This document shows, one piece after another, positions 2,477 to 11,024 of a DNA stretch of 64,000 bases. The stretch is from Bacteroidota bacterium. GTDB lineage: Bacteria > Bacteroidota > Bacteroidia > Chitinophagales > Chitinophagaceae. The stretch covers positions 1 to 64,000 of the forward strand of contig CANGUG010000002.1 of the NCBI GenBank assembly GCA_947457075.1, written 5' to 3'. The translations under genes and the position numbers were made by a program. Position 1 is the stretch's first letter. Each line of letters starts with the position of its first letter. The notes below the pieces were generated by a model. It saw only the letters and a program-made list of their open reading frames with translations. It ran no database searches and had not been told where the DNA came from.

Positions 2477-3070
2477 TTATTTCGTGAATTCGGGTCCTAA
2501 AAAATGAATGAGTAATTCAGCTGCTTCTTCACATGCAGTAGCTAAAACTTCGTTTTTAACAATCGCATTAAATTGATTGCTAAAACTTATTTCGTATGCT
2601 GCCTTGTCTATACGAGTTTGAATACTTTGAGCGGTTTCGGTTTGCCTATTCAACAAACGTTCTTTTAAAGTTTCAATGGAGGGAGGCATAATAAAAACGG
2701 AAAGACATTGATCTCCTAATTGCTGCTGAACATGAATGGCACCTTTTACATCAATATCCAATACAGGTACCTTCCCCAGGGCCCAAATGCGCGCCAGCTC
2801 CGACTTTAAAGTGCCATAATATACCCCTTCATACACTTGTTCGTATTCTAAAAAAGCATTGTCATATATAAGGCCTTCAAATTTTGCAAGGCTTAAAAAA
2901 TGGTATTCAACACCGTCTTGCTCTGCACCCCTGGGTGCACGTGTAGTAGCAGAAATTGAAAAAGCTAAACGCGGAAATCGTTTTAATAAATATTGGGTAA
3001 TGGTTGTTTTTCCAGCACCCGATGGAGCGGCCAAAATGATTACTTTTTCTAAACTAGTTGACATGCTCAA
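2477..3070 (-). CDS. gmk: Guanylate kinase
   Basis: APSGAGKTTI P-loop, SATTRAPRGAEQDGVEYHF, LDIDVKGAIHVQ. Confidence 0.95.
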   Translation of the reverse strand: MSMSTSLEKVIILAAPSGAGKTTITQYLLKRFPRLAFSISATTRAPRGAEQDGVEYHFLSLAKFEGLIYDNAFLEYEQVYEGVYYGTLKSELARIWALGKVPVLDIDVKGAIHVQQQLGDQCLSVFIMPPSIETLKERLLNRQTETAQSIQTRIDKAAYEISFSNQFNAIVKNEVLATACEEAAELLIHFLGPEFTK

Positions 3071-3131
3071 ATTTAATTAAATTATGCCGTATATTTATCT
3101 ATCATAATACATACTATTTAAATTCAGCCAT

Positions 3132-4637
3132 ATGCAAAAAAAATTATGGGTTTCCTTATTGATGATTGTAAGTTTATACGCTCAAGCACAAAAAACGGAA
3201 GATAAAAATCCAAGTTTTAAAAGAGAACTTTCCTTAGAAACCAAAACTGAAGCCAAGGGCGAAGTGACCATTAAAGGGCAAAAAGTGCCTTATAAAGTAG
3301 TTTCAGGTACCATACCCGTTTGGGATGAGGAAGGAAAGGCGATAGCTGGCTTATTTTATGTTTACTATGAGCGTACCGATGTGACTAATAAGGACGAGCG
3401 TCCATTGGTGGTTTCATTCAATGGTGGACCAGGAACTGCCAGTGTTTGGATGCATTTAGGATATACAAGCCCTAAAAAATTAAAAATAGACGACGAAGGT
3501 TATCCGGTGCAACCTTATGGAATAGAGGACAATCCACAATCCATTATTGATGTTGCTGACATTGTGTTTGTGGATCCTGTGAATACAGGCTTCTCTCGTA
3601 TTTTAGACAAGTCGGTGCCTACTTCAAAATTCTTTGGTGTCAATGCCGATGTAAAATATTTAGCTGATTGGATTAATACTTTTGTAGGCAGAAATAAAAG
3701 ATGGGCTTCTCCTAAATTTTTAATTGGAGAAAGTTATGGAACTACCCGTGTTTCTGGTTTGTCCTTAGAATTACAAAACAGACATTGGATGTTTTTAAAT
3801 GGAGTCATTTTAGTGTCACCCACCGACTTAGGCATAAAGCGTGATGGTCCTGCTAGTGCAGCTTTGCGCGTACCTTATATGGCAGCTACTGCTTGGTACC
3901 ATAAAAAACTACCTGCTGATTTACAAAGTAAGGACCTGACAAAATTTTTACCCGAAGTGGAAACATTTACAGTGAATGAATTGTTGCCTGCAATTATGCA
4001 AGGAGGAGCTTTACCTGTTGACAAGAAAAAAGAAGTAGTAAAAAAATTAGCAAAATATATTGGACTTAGTGAAACTGCCGTAACGCAACAAAATTTAGAA
4101 ATTCCTTTTGACTTTTTTTGGAAAGAATTGTTGCGTGATCAGGGTAAAACAGTGGGCCGTTTAGATTCACGCTATATTGGTATTGATAAAAAAGATGCAG
4201 GCGTAGCGCCTGACTATAATGCGGAGTTAATAAGCTGGGAACACTCTTTTACGCCAGCCATTAATATTTATTTAAGAGATGTATTGGGTTATAAGACCGA
4301 TTTAAACTATTATATATTTGGCCCTACTAATCCCTGGGACAATACCAATAACCGTACAGGAGAAGACTTACGTTTAGCAATGATGGAAAATCCTTACCTC
4401 CATTTATTGGTTCAATCAGGTTATTATGATGGGGCTTGTGATTATTTCAATGCTAAATTTAATATGTGGCAAATGGATCCTGCTGGAAAAATTCAAGACC
4501 GAATGTTTTGGGAAGGCTACCGCAGTGGACATATGATGTACCTGCGCAAAGAAGATTTAGAAACGAGTAATGATCATTTAAGAGCGTTTATAAAAAAGAG
4601 TATTCCGAAATTTGGCACCCCAGCCAAATTTCAATAA
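3132..4637 (+). CDS. S10 family serine carboxypeptidase-like, exported
   Basis: Signal peptide; FNGGPGTASVWMHLGYTSP and GESYGTTR nucleophile motif. Confidence 0.85.
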   Translation: MQKKLWVSLLMIVSLYAQAQKTEDKNPSFKRELSLETKTEAKGEVTIKGQKVPYKVVSGTIPVWDEEGKAIAGLFYVYYERTDVTNKDERPLVVSFNGGPGTASVWMHLGYTSPKKLKIDDEGYPVQPYGIEDNPQSIIDVADIVFVDPVNTGFSRILDKSVPTSKFFGVNADVKYLADWINTFVGRNKRWASPKFLIGESYGTTRVSGLSLELQNRHWMFLNGVILVSPTDLGIKRDGPASAALRVPYMAATAWYHKKLPADLQSKDLTKFLPEVETFTVNELLPAIMQGGALPVDKKKEVVKKLAKYIGLSETAVTQQNLEIPFDFFWKELLRDQGKTVGRLDSRYIGIDKKDAGVAPDYNAELISWEHSFTPAINIYLRDVLGYKTDLNYYIFGPTNPWDNTNNRTGEDLRLAMMENPYLHLLVQSGYYDGACDYFNAKFNMWQMDPAGKIQDRMFWEGYRSGHMMYLRKEDLETSNDHLRAFIKKSIPKFGTPAKFQ

Positions 4638-4643
4638 TTTTTT

Positions 4644-4690
4644 TTAAATGGAGAAATCATAACTTTTCAATTTAGGATTTCTCCATTTAA
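4644..4690 (+). terminator. Hairpin 1, 15-bp perfect stem
   Basis: ttaaatggagaaatc (4644-4658) / gatttctccatttaa (4676-4690). Confidence 0.6.
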
Positions 4691-4726
4691 TACTTGGCAC
4701 CCCTGCCAAATTTCAATAATTATTTT

Positions 4727-4773
4727 TTAAATAGAGAAATCATAACCTTTCAATTTAGGATTTCTCTATTTAA
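4727..4773 (+). terminator. Hairpin 2, 15-bp perfect stem, compensatory variant of hairpin 1
   Basis: ttaaatagagaaatc (4727-4741) / gatttctctatttaa (4759-4773). Confidence 0.6.
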
Positions 4774-4789
4774 TACTTGGCACCCCTGC

Positions 4790-4832
4790 AAAGTTTTAAG
4801 TCGCTATTTAAAATTTAGCTCCTTAAAACTTT
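4790..4832 (+). terminator. Hairpin 3, 11-bp stem
   Basis: aaagttttaag (4790-4800) / cttaaaacttt (4822-4832). Confidence 0.45.
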
Positions 4833-4846
4833 TCGATAATGATTTT

Positions 4847-4873
4847 AAAGGCCGCAGTAATGCGGCCTTTTTG
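4847..4873 (+). terminator. Rho-independent terminator
   Basis: aaaggccgca gtaa tgcggccttttt. Confidence 0.85.
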
Positions 4874-5032
4874 TTTAATAATTTTTTTAAAAAGAGAAAG
4901 CTTAAATTGAAAAGTTCGGATTCCCTTATCAGGCTTTTATACACTTAGCTATCATTTTTTTGATTGCCTATTTCGTATTCAATTTTATTGAAATATCAAA
5001 TAAGTAACTTATTTTACATGTAAATTAATTAT

Positions 5033-5728
5033 ATGAGCTCTGAAATAGATAATCTTATTGACATGGCCCTTGCTGATGGCGAGGTGACAGAGAAAGAAAG
5101 AGCAATTGTACTTCGAAAAGCAGAAGCACTAGGATTAGATAAAGATGAAGTTGAAATGATCCTTGATGGAAGAATTGCCCTCCAAAAAAAACAAGATAAC
5201 CTTAATCAACAAAAACCACTTTCTAATAAAGAGGGTGATTTAAAAAAATGTCCATCCTGTGGTTCTGGAGTCATTTCGTTTTCTACAAAATGTGAAGATT
5301 GTGGACATGAATTTAGAAACATCAGTTCTTCAAATACCATTCAAAAATTATTTACAATGTTAAATGATCTTGAGGGAAATAGAGATGATGATAAGCCTAA
5401 TTTAATGGACGGTTTGGGTAATATTTTTGGACAAGCTTTTGGAATGAAGGATAAAATTGAATCACAAAAAAAAGAGTTTATCGCAAATTTTCCAGTACCA
5501 AATACAAAAGAAGATATCATAGAGTTTCTGGCATTAGCATTGCCTAAAACAAAAAAAATGGGATTTTTTACTAGTGATGGTTTTACTCGAAAAGCACATA
5601 ATGAAATGGCTGCGATTTGGGAAGGCAAATGTCATCAAATTATAATGAAAGCTCGTTTCGCAATGAAAGAAGATAAATCAACATTAGCAGAAATAGAACA
5701 ATACGCAAAACAATTAGGAATAAAGTAG
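5033..5728 (+). CDS. TerB-like N-terminal domain plus zinc-ribbon protein
   Basis: MALADGEVTEKERAIVLRKAEALGLDKDEVE (TerB-like); CPSCG...CEDCGHEF zinc ribbon. Confidence 0.7.
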   Translation: MSSEIDNLIDMALADGEVTEKERAIVLRKAEALGLDKDEVEMILDGRIALQKKQDNLNQQKPLSNKEGDLKKCPSCGSGVISFSTKCEDCGHEFRNISSSNTIQKLFTMLNDLEGNRDDDKPNLMDGLGNIFGQAFGMKDKIESQKKEFIANFPVPNTKEDIIEFLALALPKTKKMGFFTSDGFTRKAHNEMAAIWEGKCHQIIMKARFAMKEDKSTLAEIEQYAKQLGIK

Positions 5729-5761
5729 TTATTAAAATATTTTAAAAATAAATTTTTTATT

Positions 5762-7207
5762 ATGGGATTATTTAGCAGATCTAAAGAAGGCGGTATGATG
5801 GATGTAATTCGTTGTGATGAACCAGAATATTTAATTTGGAAATGGAGGCCAGCAGGTAATGATGCAAACACAACCAAAAAAGAAAATTCAATTAGGTATG
5901 GTAGTAGTTTACGTGTTAAAGATGGAGAAGTTGCTGTTTTTGTTTACAGTCAAAAAGACGGACCTGTTCAGGATTATATAGTTGGTCCTTATGACGAAAC
6001 CATTAAAACTGCAAATTTCCCTGTACTTTCAAGTATTGTTGGTTTAGCATATGGGGGTGACACGCCATTTCAAGCAGAAGTCTATTTTATAAACTTAGCA
6101 GGAAATATTCAAATCAAATTTGGCATTCCTTATTTTGATGTGAGAGATTGGAATCCATCTTTAAAAATTAGCAGGCTAACTGCTCCTGTTGCAGTCAGGG
6201 GAACTTTAACCTTTAATATTACCGACTATAAGGCATTTATAAAATTAAATCGTTTAATCAACTTTGAGTTAGATACGTTTAAAAATCAGATGAAAGACGA
6301 TTTAACAAAAGAAATTAAAAAGATAGTTACAAATGTTCCCAATCAACTGCAGGTTCCACTTATTGCTATAAATGAGAAGCTAGCAGAAATCGAATCATAT
6401 ACTGTTCCTTTAGTAAAAAATAATATTGAATCTCTTTATGGTATAACTATAAAAAGCCTAGCAATAGCAGATGTTGAAATAGACAAAGATTCTGAAGATT
6501 ATAAAAAATTAGAAAAAGTAACGTCTCAACAAGATGAAAGATCATTAGATGCGCAATTTAATTCTAATCTTAAAATTTTAGAAGCACAAACGGATACCAC
6601 TATTCAAAATATGGCTGATATGCAAGCCATTAATGCAGTAAATATGGAGGAATCGTTAAGAATTCAACGAGAAGAAATGCAAAGAGCACAGCAATTGCAA
6701 ACAGAAACAAATTTCTTTGATACTCATAAGTTGAATATTCAAACAGACGCACAAAAAACAATTTTAACTTCTGCTGCAGACAGTTTAGGTGCAATGGGTA
6801 ATATGAATTTGGGTAGTGGAGGCGGTGGAATGAATCCTGCAGGCATGATGACTGGAATGATGATGGGAGGGGCAATGGGTGGTCAAATGGCCAATATGAT
6901 GAATAACATGGGAAATAATATGCAGCAAAATATGCAATCTGGTCCAGGGGCAATGCCTCCTAATACTGGTCAAGCTGGGGGTCCACCACCACCTCCACAA
7001 AGCGCTTTTCATATTTCAGTTAATGGACAACAAGCTGGACCATTTAATATGCAACAGTTACAGCAATTGGTTATGAATGGCCAATTAACACCGTCCACTT
7101 TTGTTTGGAAAACAGGAATGGCTGAATGGGCAGAGGCGAATAAATTAATTGAATTACAACAATTGTTTAATTCTGCTCCACCGCCACCACCACCACCGGT
7201 GGGTTAA
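5762..7207 (+). CDS. SPFH-domain protein with Met/Gly/Asn-rich linker, C-terminal GYF_2-like domain and poly-Pro tail
   Basis: MDVIRCDEPEYLIWKWRP... SPFH-type N-terminus; FHISVNGQQAGPFNMQQLQQLVMNGQLTPSTFVWKTGMAEW GYF_2 pattern; ends PPPPPPPVG. Confidence 0.75.
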   Translation: MGLFSRSKEGGMMDVIRCDEPEYLIWKWRPAGNDANTTKKENSIRYGSSLRVKDGEVAVFVYSQKDGPVQDYIVGPYDETIKTANFPVLSSIVGLAYGGDTPFQAEVYFINLAGNIQIKFGIPYFDVRDWNPSLKISRLTAPVAVRGTLTFNITDYKAFIKLNRLINFELDTFKNQMKDDLTKEIKKIVTNVPNQLQVPLIAINEKLAEIESYTVPLVKNNIESLYGITIKSLAIADVEIDKDSEDYKKLEKVTSQQDERSLDAQFNSNLKILEAQTDTTIQNMADMQAINAVNMEESLRIQREEMQRAQQLQTETNFFDTHKLNIQTDAQKTILTSAADSLGAMGNMNLGSGGGGMNPAGMMTGMMMGGAMGGQMANMMNNMGNNMQQNMQSGPGAMPPNTGQAGGPPPPPQSAFHISVNGQQAGPFNMQQLQQLVMNGQLTPSTFVWKTGMAEWAEANKLIELQQLFNSAPPPPPPPVG

Positions 7208-7220
7208 TTTTTATTAGGTT

Positions 7221-8966
7221 ATGAGTGAAAGTCAGTTTAACGAATTAATTCAAAAAGAATATCAATTTAAAGGCGAGAAAAGCCCTATTGGAATAGCTAT
7301 TTATGAAAATGCACCCGTTGACGGATTGGTAGTTTCAATGCCATTAAAAATGTTAAATAGACATGGTTTAATTGCTGGTGCAACGGGTACAGGTAAAACC
7401 AAGACGCTACAGGTAATTGCAGAACAGTTATCACTAAACGGAGTTCCGTCTTTGTTGATGGATTTAAAGGGAGATTTAGGTGGGCTTGCTATGCCGGGTC
7501 AAAAAAATGAAGTTGTAGAAACAAGAAGAAAATTATTTAACGGGACCTATGAATACCCCTATCAAGGATTTCCTTTAAATATTTTATCCATCGGAGAAGA
7601 CGAAGGGGTCTCTATAAAGGCATCAATTCAAGAATTTGGTCCAGTATTACTTTCTAAAATATTAGGACTTAATAATGTTCAGTCTGGTATAATTAGTATT
7701 GCATTTAAGTATTGTGAAGACAATAAATTAACCCTGAATACAATTGCTGATTTAAAATTTTTTTTAACTAAAATTTGCGAAGCAAATAATGATATTAAAG
7801 AAAATTATGGAAATATAAGTGACGCCTCTGTAACAACGATATTAAGAAATATTGCAGAACTTGAACAACAAGGAGGCAACTATTTAATTGGTGCTCCTGG
7901 ACTTGATGTAAATGATTTAATTATGTGCGACGACCAAAATAAGGGAGTGTTGTCAATTATTAGATTAACTCAGTTACAAGACAAGCCTACGTTGTTTTCT
8001 ACATTTATCATTTATTTACTTTCAAAATTATATTCCAATTTACCAGAAGTGGGAGATTTAGAAAAGCCCAAATTGGTAATGTTTATTGATGAGGCACATC
8101 TTTTATTTAACGATACAAATAAAGTTATTCAAGAAAAAATTGAATCAATCATTAAGCTCATTAGATCAAAAGGGGTTGGCATCATATTTTGTACACAAAC
8201 TCCAACGGATATTTCTGAAACTGTATTAGGACAGCTAGGCTTAAAAATACAGCACTCATTAAGGGCTTTTACTGCAAAAGATAGAAAGTCTGTAAAAATG
8301 ATGGCTCAAAATTTTCCAGACACTTTATTTTATAATGTGGAAGAGGACTTAACTTCATTGGGAATAGGTGAGGCATTCATTACATTATTGAAAGAAGATG
8401 GAGCTCCTTCTGCACTCGTAAAATCTTTAATGGCACCGCCCTTATCAAGAATGGGCATTTTAGAAAGCAAGGAACTCAACAAAATAATCAATAACTCTCT
8501 GCTTAAATCAAAATATGGAAGTAAGAATACAGTTTTATTAAAGCCTTCGAAAGAATTAGAAGATTTTTATAAAAAATTGTTTTTAATTAAAGAAAAGGAA
8601 AAATTAGAAGCGGCTAAACAAAAAGAAGCGGCTAAACAAAATGCCAAAGGAAATACTACCCCCAACAAGATGGTAATACCCAAAAGACAATCTTATGCGA
8701 ATATGATGTATGGAGCTATGTTGCCAATGGCGAATATGTTTTCAAACATGATGGGGGGCATTAATAATGGAACAAGCAATCAACAGCAAAATATTCAGTA
8801 CTATTATGCTAAAAACGGGCAACAGTTTGGTCCGGTTTCAGATATTCAAATATCCCAATTCATTATGAATGGTGAAATTAATGCCTTTTCCTATTTATGG
8901 AAAACAGGAATGTCAGAATGGTCACTAGCAACAAATTTTTTAGAATTTCAAAATTTATTAAAATAA
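7221..8966 (+). CDS. HerA/DUF853-like ATPase with C-terminal GYF_2-like domain
   Basis: GATGTGKTKT Walker A; KLVMFIDEAHLLF Walker B; C-terminus YYYAKNGQQFGPVSDIQISQFIMNGEINAFSYLWKTGMSEW. Confidence 0.8.
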   Translation: MSESQFNELIQKEYQFKGEKSPIGIAIYENAPVDGLVVSMPLKMLNRHGLIAGATGTGKTKTLQVIAEQLSLNGVPSLLMDLKGDLGGLAMPGQKNEVVETRRKLFNGTYEYPYQGFPLNILSIGEDEGVSIKASIQEFGPVLLSKILGLNNVQSGIISIAFKYCEDNKLTLNTIADLKFFLTKICEANNDIKENYGNISDASVTTILRNIAELEQQGGNYLIGAPGLDVNDLIMCDDQNKGVLSIIRLTQLQDKPTLFSTFIIYLLSKLYSNLPEVGDLEKPKLVMFIDEAHLLFNDTNKVIQEKIESIIKLIRSKGVGIIFCTQTPTDISETVLGQLGLKIQHSLRAFTAKDRKSVKMMAQNFPDTLFYNVEEDLTSLGIGEAFITLLKEDGAPSALVKSLMAPPLSRMGILESKELNKIINNSLLKSKYGSKNTVLLKPSKELEDFYKKLFLIKEKEKLEAAKQKEAAKQNAKGNTTPNKMVIPKRQSYANMMYGAMLPMANMFSNMMGGINNGTSNQQQNIQYYYAKNGQQFGPVSDIQISQFIMNGEINAFSYLWKTGMSEWSLATNFLEFQNLLK

Positions 8967-8979
8967 AAAAAAGATAATT

Positions 8980-9327
8980 ATGAACCAGGATAACAATTTT
9001 TCGCCAATAGAGCGTTTAATGGAATTTGGCATGAGTATGGCAGTAGCCAATCAAATGATACAAACCATGAATGACGTTTTGTCCAAATCAAAAAATCCTG
9101 TAATGCCGGGAGTGCAGTTACCGACACCATCGACAAAAATGTACTTTGTTGTAATCAACGATATTACACAGGGCCCATTTACTGAAAATGAAATTTTGAA
9201 ATATATTATATCTGAACAAATAACAGAATCAACATTTGTTTGGCATGAAGGCATGTCTCATTGGGAGCTTTCTAAAGATATTCCTGATGTAGCAAAATTA
9301 TTTTTATTAAAACCACCTAAATTTTAA
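8980..9327 (+). CDS. Small protein with C-terminal GYF_2-like domain
   Basis: MYFVVINDITQGPFTENEILKYIISEQITESTFVWHEGMSHWE. Confidence 0.7.
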   Translation: MNQDNNFSPIERLMEFGMSMAVANQMIQTMNDVLSKSKNPVMPGVQLPTPSTKMYFVVINDITQGPFTENEILKYIISEQITESTFVWHEGMSHWELSKDIPDVAKLFLLKPPKF

Positions 9328-9330
9328 TTT

Positions 9331-9675
9331 ATGAAACCGAATTTTTTTTTATTAATCATTGCGTTTTTACTAACTTCTTTAATTTCATTTACTATTTATT
9401 CCTATAGTCTAGCCACTACTAGAAATATTAGTACTGTATTTTCTTTTTTAACATTTTTTAGTTATTTAGCAGCATTAATTGGTGTTAAGTTTGAGTATCA
9501 AAAAGCACAAGTATTAAAAAATACACTCTCAATAGTTTTTTTATTGGCTAACTGTATTTTAACTACCATTTTTCTAAAAATTGATTATTCTTTACCAATC
9601 TACTTTTTATTAAATGGTGGAATCTTATTAATTTATTATACAATTTTATATTTTTTTAATAAATCTAACATGTAA
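9331..9675 (+). CDS. Small multi-pass membrane protein, unknown
   Basis: About four hydrophobic segments; 3 nt after the upstream CDS; TAATG overlap with the downstream CDS. Confidence 0.6.
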   Translation: MKPNFFLLIIAFLLTSLISFTIYSYSLATTRNISTVFSFLTFFSYLAALIGVKFEYQKAQVLKNTLSIVFLLANCILTTIFLKIDYSLPIYFLLNGGILLIYYTILYFFNKSNM

Positions 9676-10118
9676 TGAAAGTATTAAAGTGTAAGGCTTG
9701 TGGTGCATATTTAGAATATAAATTAGGTTCGCCTGTTTCTATTTGTAGCTATTGTGATATAGTAAATATCATTTCGGAAGATGTATTGACACCAGCATCC
9801 ATTACACAAACAGAAAATAATGAGGTTGTAGGAGCGGCCATGCAAATTGAAGAGAAATATATGGCCAATTATTTTATTGCATTAGGCGTAAGTCAGGGCG
9901 GCAAATTATTAATATCAAATAAAGAAATTTTATTTAGACCTCATATAATAAATCTGGGCAATTTGTCTGATAAATATATTAAGCTACAAGACATCACATC
10001 CTTTGAAAAGCCATTCTTCCCTTTATTTTTAAAAATACATGCAACAGGTAATAGAGTCATGTTTCTATCCACTTGGAGTAGAAATAAGATTATACAATCA
10101 ATATTAAATAGGCAATGA
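9675..10118 (+). CDS. Zinc-ribbon plus GRAM/PH-like domain protein
   Basis: CKACG...CSYC; GGKLLISNKEILFRPH...LQDITSFEK resembles a GRAM fold. Confidence 0.55.
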   Translation: MKVLKCKACGAYLEYKLGSPVSICSYCDIVNIISEDVLTPASITQTENNEVVGAAMQIEEKYMANYFIALGVSQGGKLLISNKEILFRPHIINLGNLSDKYIKLQDITSFEKPFFPLFLKIHATGNRVMFLSTWSRNKIIQSILNRQ

Positions 10119-10173
10119 TCTGAGTTCCGGTTTAATTTTGATTTAAGCAAAAGATAGGTGCTAATTTTCTTCT

Positions 10174-10857
10174 TTATCCATATTTACTAACCAGCCATAC
10201 AATTCCATAAACTAAACCAATACCTATAATTATAAACCATATGTAATTAGCCTTCTTTTTGGCACTAGCTAATTTTTTTTCATATGCTTCAATAAGTGTC
10301 ATAGATTTTAAGTCCTCTCTAAATAAAATTTTAGCTTTTAATAGTGCTTCGCTACCCTTGCTTTCCCATGCAGAAACAACATATCCCATTCCTCTACTTG
10401 TCCAACTTACATCTGCCTGAGAGATACATACTGTCAAGAATTCAAGTAAATCTTCCCTAGAATTAGGGATAGGTGTATTGTTAATTTGATCTGCCTTTCG
10501 TTGTTCAAAATCGTAATCTTCTTCTTCAGCTCCCTTTTTTAATGCATTTATTCTATTTAACAATTCAGAGATAGTTTTATTTGCACCAACATTGTTGAAT
10601 TCATGTCCACAATCTTCACACGACATAGTCATTGTTTTTACAGGAGAACCGCAAGCGGGACAAGTTTTTATATTTCCCACTTTTTCTTTACTTGACTTCG
10701 TTTGTTGTTTAAATATTAATGCTTCAATAGTTATTTCAATTTCATCTTGGTCCACTCCAAGTTCAATGCCTTTTTTTATAATAACTGCTTTTTCTTTTTC
10801 AGAAATTTGTCCATCAACCATAGACAATTCAATTAGTTTTTCAATTTCAGAGTGCAT
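10174..10857 (-). CDS. TerB-like/zinc-ribbon protein with C-terminal TM helix, paralogue of 5033-5728
   Basis: MHSEIEKLIELSMVDGQISEKEKAVI; CPACG...CEDCGHEF; C-terminal IWFIIIGIGLVYGIVWLV. The ORF-track start at 10890 is probably too early. Confidence 0.7.
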   Translation of the reverse strand: MHSEIEKLIELSMVDGQISEKEKAVIIKKGIELGVDQDEIEITIEALIFKQQTKSSKEKVGNIKTCPACGSPVKTMTMSCEDCGHEFNNVGANKTISELLNRINALKKGAEEEDYDFEQRKADQINNTPIPNSREDLLEFLTVCISQADVSWTSRGMGYVVSAWESKGSEALLKAKILFREDLKSMTLIEAYEKKLASAKKKANYIWFIIIGIGLVYGIVWLVSKYG

Positions 10858-11024
10858 ATAAATTATTTTAATTTTATGAAGCCAATGCAATATATAATAT
10901 TATTTATATAAATAAAAACTATTCTGCAACCTGACTATTTTAAAAGGTTGTTACTCACCTCTCATCTGAATAATCAATAATAAGATATAACCGAGTATTC
11001 TAATATATTAAATATTATTTATAT

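What the first reader, a model, noticed from the sequence alone, without database searches (positions are those of the whole stretch)
5033..10890. Uncharacterised gene set: SPFH protein, HerA-like ATPase, three GYF_2-like domains and zinc-ribbon proteins
Seen in the sequence: five closely packed plus-strand genes follow a TerB-like/zinc-ribbon gene, with small gaps and a TAATG overlap. Three consecutive proteins end in a similar GYF-like module (GPF/GPV...FxWxxGMxxW). The ATPase has clear Walker A and B motifs. A zinc-ribbon/GRAM-like protein and a small multi-TM protein complete the set. Established: SPFH proteins act at membranes, and HerA-type ATPases form hexameric motors that occur in several anti-phage systems. 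Inference: a membrane-associated ATPase complex held together by GYF modules. Its role (defence, envelope stress, contractile particle handling or other) cannot be decided from the sequence. This is the best candidate here for an undescribed system.
Basis: partly seen in the sequence, partly recalled or inferred. Interest (0 to 1): 0.8.

Follow-up and report, generated by a model that had tools for sequence, protein, structure and literature searches.

The report
Undescribed SPFH membrane-complex operon with HerA
This is a real set of bacterial genes, found in patchy fashion across the Bacteroidota, that probably builds a membrane-bound protein scaffold held together by small proline-reading modules; in this lineage an ATP-driven motor-like protein has been given the same docking module and plugged into the set.

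Summary
In detail: TerB/zinc-ribbon, SPFH-GYF, HerA(YjgR)-GYF, small GYF, 4-TM and zinc-ribbon/GRAM genes lie tightly packed on the + strand (5033-10118); a second, TM-tailed TerB/zinc-ribbon gene faces them. A scan of about 85,000 species' genomes found 164 relatives of the SPFH-GYF protein. The best 80 show a conserved core, TerB-ZnR > SPFH-GYF > small GYF > 4-TM protein, mostly in Bacteroidota. HerA is not core: only the window and one sister genome carry it, GYF-tagged in place of the normal YjgR tail, as the only HerA_C gene in each. GYF_2 domains occur nowhere else in the window's genome. SPFH proteins carry proline runs beside their GYF domain (76/79 before, 78/79 after); this SPFH is the genome's only evident cytosolic PPPPP protein. 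PspA is absent (window, and 39 of 40 core-bearing genomes), so this is not a Psp operon, although Bacillus YdjI is the nearest studied relative. Best explanation: a PspA-independent SPFH membrane scaffold held by GYF-polyproline contacts, probably for membrane or ion stress, with HerA as lineage-specific client. Defence is not supported. Function is untested.

The parts
5033..5728 (+). TerB1: TerB-like N-terminal helices + CxxC...CxxC zinc ribbon + C-terminal helical domain (core gene 1)
   Evidence: Pfam TerB 9e-5, zinc ribbons; four Cys invariant in 35 relatives; AlphaFold mean pLDDT 85.5, eight helices, no PDB match at E<=0.001
5762..7207 (+). SPFH (Band_7_1) protein without N-terminal TM: SPFH domain, ~95-residue helix, Met/Gly-rich segment, Pro run, GYF_2, C-terminal Pro run (core gene 2, hub)
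   Evidence: Pfam; model matches HflK/C, flotillin, stomatin, and GltJ/Smy2 GYF domains; Pro runs conserved; no TM segment
7221..8966 (+). HerA-like ATPase of the YjgR (HerA_C/DUF853) family with the family's C-terminal helix replaced by a Met-rich linker and a GYF_2 domain (lineage-specific addition)
   Evidence: HerA_C 1e-145; PDB 11kk YjgR 2e-103; tail comparison; Walker motifs; rarity
8980..9327 (+). Small protein: conserved Met-rich N-terminal helix + GYF_2 (core gene 3)
   Evidence: GYF_2 3e-12; found next to SPFH in 66 of 79 loci
9331..9675 (+). Four-TM protein of ~115 aa, no Pfam family (core gene 4, presumed membrane anchor)
   Evidence: TM segments; relatives in 71 of 79 loci; no consistent Pfam family across 22 members
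9675..10118 (+). Zinc ribbon + GRAM/PH-like protein, TAATG-overlapping the 4-TM gene (accessory)
   Evidence: GRAM 0.001; 38% identical protein follows a short SPFH-GYF and a small hydrophobic protein in L009; not seen in the 80 core loci
10174..10857 (-). TerB2: TerB-like + zinc ribbon + C-terminal TM segment, facing the operon
   Evidence: TM 206-224; TM-tailed TerB paralogues also at other core loci

Best explanation
A membrane-associated scaffold system, here called TerB-SPFH-GYF-4TM. Shown by sequence: the gene set, its conservation, the domain make-up, the polyproline/GYF pairing inside one operon, the absence of PspA, and HerA as a rare addition. Inferred: the SPFH protein oligomerises into a ring or cage like other SPFH proteins. 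Having no TM helix of its own, it is held at the inner membrane by the 4-TM protein and TM-tailed TerB/ZnR proteins, as Bacillus YdjI is by YdjG/YdjH. Its many proline tails and GYF domains form a multivalent mesh with each other and with the small GYF protein, and dock GYF-tagged clients. TerB/zinc-ribbon proteins serve as sensor or adaptor. The likely purpose is to guard membrane integrity or ion balance under stress. In this lineage the cell's only YjgR-type HerA ATPase lies in the operon and carries the GYF tag, so that a presumably hexameric ATPase is recruited to the scaffold.
For: Conserved 4-gene core in 79 analysed loci (71 with the TM family, 66 with the small GYF neighbour, 70 with an upstream TerB neighbour). 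The genome's only three GYF_2 domains are in this operon; 40 of 40 core genomes have GYF_2, more than half of them exactly two. Pro runs before/after the GYF in 76/79 and 78/79 SPFH proteins; 53 of 79 have PPPPP, against 2 of 944 other ORFs in the same loci. Genome-wide PPPPP occurs only in this SPFH, a TonB-like protein and one probable lipoprotein. Structure model matches HflK/C, flotillin, stomatin and GYF domains including Smy2 bound to a Pro-rich peptide. YdjI precedent: SPFH protein without TM, membrane-localised through YdjG/YdjH (PMC8581546). HerA is the sole HerA_C gene, GYF-tagged in both genomes that have it in the operon. CASTOR/POLLUX or Ion_trans channel genes near the operon in 10 of 79 loci.
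Against: No binding, localisation or phenotype data. GYF_2 domains lack the literal GYF motif, so proline binding is unproven here. The ion-channel link is a minority pattern without a background control. TerB scores are just under Pfam's cut-off. The window's SPFH sits on a fairly long branch. The HerA tail's resemblance to the SPFH Met-rich segment is not robust, so only the GYF itself links them firmly.
Confidence: 0.5

Rival explanations
1. Anti-phage defence system in which the HerA ATPase is the effector or motor, assembled at the membrane by SPFH/GYF proteins.
For: HerA ATPases occur in several defence systems; patchy distribution (4 of 151 genomes including the window's carry a close SPFH); tight operon.
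Against: HerA is missing from nearly all core operons; it is YjgR-type, not a defence HerA; no nuclease, Sir2 or other effector partner; the SPFH, GYF, TM and GRAM proteins have no PADLOC match at E<=0.1; 145 flanking proteins give no recurrent defence family, none of those listed matched by more than 3, many of them kinase-type models; essentially absent from phages, plasmids and viral contigs.
Confidence: 0.1
2. Ion-channel regulating complex: the SPFH protein controls co-encoded or other channels, as stomatins do in animals; stress sensing is by TerB (a domain linked to metal-ion stress).
For: CASTOR/POLLUX-type channel gene within a few genes on the same strand in 8 of 79 loci, Ion_trans channel in 2 more and in G040/G064.
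Against: Most loci, including the window, have no channel gene nearby; no background rate measured; three of the CASTOR genes lie upstream of the core rather than after it.
Confidence: 0.2
3. A Psp (PspA-YdjGHI) envelope-stress operon in Bacteroidota guise.
For: Band_7_1 SPFH without TM plus zinc-ribbon and membrane partners, as in B. subtilis pspA-ydjGHI.
Against: PspA absent from the window's genome and from 39 of 40 core-bearing genomes; no TPM-domain (YdjH) gene; GYF, TerB and 4-TM parts are not in YdjGHI.
Confidence: 0.05
4. HerA is the functional centre in this lineage: a membrane-tethered DNA translocase (segregation, DNA uptake or repair), with the SPFH scaffold merely as its anchor.
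For: It is the genome's only HerA_C gene, keeps Walker motifs and is GYF-tagged in two genomes.
Against: The core exists without HerA almost everywhere; YjgR's own function is not described in anything I could find.
Confidence: 0.12

Closest known systems
Bacillus subtilis YdjI / pspA-ydjGHI complex (PMC8581546, PMC9239133)
   Same: Band_7-type SPFH protein lacking its own TM; zinc-ribbon and TM partners in the same operon; probable membrane-stress role
   Different: No PspA, no TPM domain; has GYF_2, polyproline tails, TerB and a 4-TM protein instead
YjgR / HerA_C (DUF853) family (PDB 11kk)
   Same: ATPase core aligned over residues 43-434, E 2e-103
   Different: C-terminal helix of the family replaced by linker + GYF_2; sits in an SPFH operon
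Short SPFH-GYF + zinc-ribbon pairs of Bacteroidota (L008-L031)
   Same: SPFH + GYF with flanking Pro runs; often next to zinc-ribbon proteins
   Different: Only ~25% identical in the SPFH part, shorter (~360 aa), neighbours differ; no TerB/small-GYF/4-TM core seen
GltJ GYF domain of Myxococcus gliding machinery (PDB 7z3c)
   Same: Nearest solved bacterial GYF domain; also in a membrane machine
   Different: Unrelated protein otherwise
TerB / Ter stress systems
   Same: TerB-like domain
   Different: No TerC, TerD or TerE genes in the operon; TerB here is fused to a zinc ribbon and a helical domain without PDB match

Membership tests
Psp (PspA-YdjGHI) | PspA/ESCRT-III protein present | tested here: not met
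   0 in the window's genome; 1 of 40 core genomes; control rings in E. coli and B. subtilis
Psp (PspA-YdjGHI) | Band_7_1 SPFH protein without TM | tested here: met
   Band_7_1 also rings in B. subtilis
Psp (PspA-YdjGHI) | TPM-domain protein (YdjH) in the operon | tested here: not met
   Pfam scan of all operon proteins
SPFH superfamily | SPFH fold | tested here: met
   Foldseek to HflK/C 1.7e-6, flotillin 2.2e-6, stomatin 1.2e-5
SPFH superfamily | Oligomeric ring or cage at the membrane | not testable with these tools
   single-chain models only
YjgR (HerA_C) | HerA_C ATPase core with Walker A/B | tested here: met
   1e-145; motifs
YjgR (HerA_C) | Typical C-terminal tail helix (e.g. RQVGRTVAREITRGILG) | tested here: not met
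   replaced by Met-rich linker + GYF_2
HerA-based defence systems | Defence-type HerA over curated score | tested here: not met
   NCBIfam HerA_antiphage 21-30 bits against cut-offs of 800-850
HerA-based defence systems | Nuclease or Sir2/DUF4297 partner gene | tested here: not met
   none among operon proteins or immediate neighbours scanned
Ter system | TerB domain | tested here: inconclusive
   9e-5, 23.2 bits against cut-off 24.4
Ter system | TerC/TerD/TerE partners | tested here: not met
   none in the operon; not searched genome-wide
GYF domain family | GYF_2 profile and fold | tested here: met
GYF domain family | Binds proline-rich peptide | not testable with these tools
   only co-occurrence of Pro runs and GYF domains shown

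The most novel reading that the evidence does not exclude
A widespread, undescribed, PspA-independent SPFH membrane-scaffold system whose parts assemble by a private GYF-polyproline code, with a variable position after the SPFH gene into which clients such as a GYF-tagged HerA motor are inserted and recruited.
Probability: 0.4. Interest if true: 0.75.

Novelty: new variant of a known kind. Interest (0 to 1): 0.55.

Why it matters
SPFH scaffolds are nearly universal but their job in bacteria is poorly defined. Here a compact, recurrent four-gene kit encodes the scaffold, its presumed membrane anchor and its presumed docking code together, and one enzyme (HerA/YjgR, whose function I could not find described) has been tagged for docking. 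That makes both the SPFH role and the YjgR role directly testable, and would be a bacterial case of modular polyproline-based assembly at a membrane.

Tried and rejected
Defence island: PADLOC on operon and 145 flanking proteins gave nothing recurrent. Phage or plasmid carriage: no full-length relative in plasmids; the one relative in 'phages' is an unverified scaffold whose other genes look bacterial; 1 viral contig. HerA tail copied from the SPFH Met-rich segment: the window's tail beats all 200 shuffles without bias correction but fails with it, and the sister HerA fails both, so left as unproven; the small GYF protein's helix does better. TerB1 C-terminal domain identity: no PDB fold match. 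Pfam for the 4-TM family: none. Literature for SPFH with GYF and HerA, SPFH with TerB, GYF with flotillin, GltJ with GYF, TerB with zinc ribbon: nothing relevant in the held library. A first regex for Pro runs missed most proteins and was redone with HMM coordinates.

Full report
1. What is there. Six + strand genes run from 5033 to 10118: TerB/zinc ribbon, SPFH-GYF, HerA-GYF, small GYF, 4-TM, zinc ribbon/GRAM. A second TerB/zinc-ribbon gene with a TM tail lies opposite at 10174-10857. The three GYF_2 domains are the only ones in the 2.2 Mb, 96.5% complete genome.

2. The conserved unit. Among 150 genomes of the same order, the SPFH protein has only three other close full-length relatives. A scan of one genome for each of about 85,000 species with an alignment of these four gave 164 relatives, of which the best 80 were fetched. 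Around the 79 scorable ones, clustering finds a 4-TM family in 71 loci and a small GYF protein in 66, with a TerB/zinc-ribbon gene upstream in 70. Spacing is tight: the small GYF gene starts within 120 bp of SPFH in 59 of 66, the TM gene within 60 bp of the GYF gene in 44 of 48. The hosts are mostly Bacteroidota, with Spirochaetota, a Verrucomicrobiota MAG and Caenimonas. In the midpoint-rooted SPFH tree the non-Bacteroidota rows lie among Bacteroidota rows, compatible with horizontal spread but not proof of it.

3. HerA is an addition. Only the window and L068 have HerA in the operon. In both it carries a GYF_2 domain, the two are 67% identical, and the two SPFH proteins are neighbours in the tree (support 91/87), so one insertion suffices. 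Ordinary YjgR proteins in the phylum are about 510 aa, about 50% identical in the ATPase part, and end in a different helix. No other HerA-GYF appeared in 399 genomes of the order or 396 of the phylum. In both HerA-GYF genomes it is the only HerA_C gene found; of the other 39 core genomes checked, seven have an ordinary YjgR elsewhere and 32 none (several are incomplete MAGs).

4. A position for inserts. In seven loci the gap between SPFH and the small GYF gene is 400-1460 bp and can hold unrelated genes: a 313/319-aa family in L135 and G040, a lipoprotein-like gene in L131, a secreted-protein-like gene in L127. HerA uses the same position in the window. Other loci insert a 137-aa protein or a TerB copy between small GYF and TM.

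5. Proline runs. 76 of 79 SPFH proteins have a proline-rich run just before the GYF domain, 78 of 79 after it, 75 both; 53 have PPPPP, against 2 of 944 other ORFs of at least 100 aa in the same loci. The distantly related short SPFH-GYF proteins mostly show the same. In the window's genome all 39 DNA matches to five proline codons were traced: in frame they fall in this SPFH, a TonB-like protein and a probable lipoprotein. HerA and the 4-TM family have no Pro runs. So one protein supplies proline tails and three supply GYF domains; this is why I propose GYF-polyproline docking. It is inference: the GYF_2 sequence lacks the literal GYF motif, although the model resembles GYF domains solved with proline-rich peptides.

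6. Structure. The SPFH model (45 sequences, mean pLDDT 74.7) has a mostly confident SPFH domain, a ~95-residue helix, a poorly resolved Met/Gly segment and a confident GYF domain. Foldseek finds HflK/C, flotillin, stomatin, prohibitin and vault. TerB1 (pLDDT 85.5) is all-helical apart from the zinc ribbon and has no significant PDB match.

7. Nearest studied system. B. subtilis YdjI is an SPFH protein without its own TM that needs YdjG and YdjH to reach the membrane and links PspA to it (PMC8581546). Band_7_1 rings in B. subtilis and twice in the window's genome. But PspA is missing from the window's genome and from 39 of 40 core genomes. It may work like the SPFH part of that system; it is not a member of it.

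8. Role. Defence is unsupported. Channel genes (CASTOR/POLLUX in 8 loci, Ion_trans in 2 plus G040 and G064) near the operon hint at ion balance, without a background test. I commit, at about 0.5, to a membrane-stress scaffold with GYF-polyproline docking and HerA as a recruited client.

9. Novelty. No paper in the held library describes this set; the two Psp surveys do not mention GYF. Subscription journals are mostly not held, so an earlier description cannot be excluded. I file it as a new variant of a known kind (SPFH membrane complexes).

Noticed in passing
L074, L080, L082, L097, L107, L132, L139, L142: A CASTOR/POLLUX-type ion channel gene (~634 aa) lies within a few genes of the core on the same strand; five times after the 4-TM gene.
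   Followed up: partly
L076, L112, L034:7780-8607, L019:2-727: A voltage-gated Ion_trans channel gene lies downstream of the core on the same strand (Pfam 8e-46 for L112).
   Followed up: partly
L036 (G000:C17:1-15000), 2833-5517, - strand: Second Band_7_1 SPFH protein (with SHOCT, no GYF) in the window's genome, followed by three small, partly zinc-ribbon proteins and a small hydrophobic protein: a paralogous arrangement.
   Followed up: partly
L183 (MT835670.1): Record labelled 'Bacteriophage sp.' (unverified) carries ABC-transporter and two-component-like genes beside a TerB-like/SPFH-GYF pair; it looks like a bacterial contig.
   Followed up: partly
L129 genome, G806:C2:750548-751152 and 780951-781555: Two SPFH/GYF pairs with identical GYF_2 scores 30 kb apart on one contig: apparently a duplicated operon.
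   Followed up: no
L067:47-538, L109:5982-6479, L110:891-1328: A ~165-aa protein without Pfam match (checked on the L067 copy) lies upstream of TerB in three distant loci.
   Followed up: no
L096, L102, L103: TerB proteins with a GYF domain N-terminal to TerB: another GYF-tagged client in a Bacteroidales group.
   Followed up: partly
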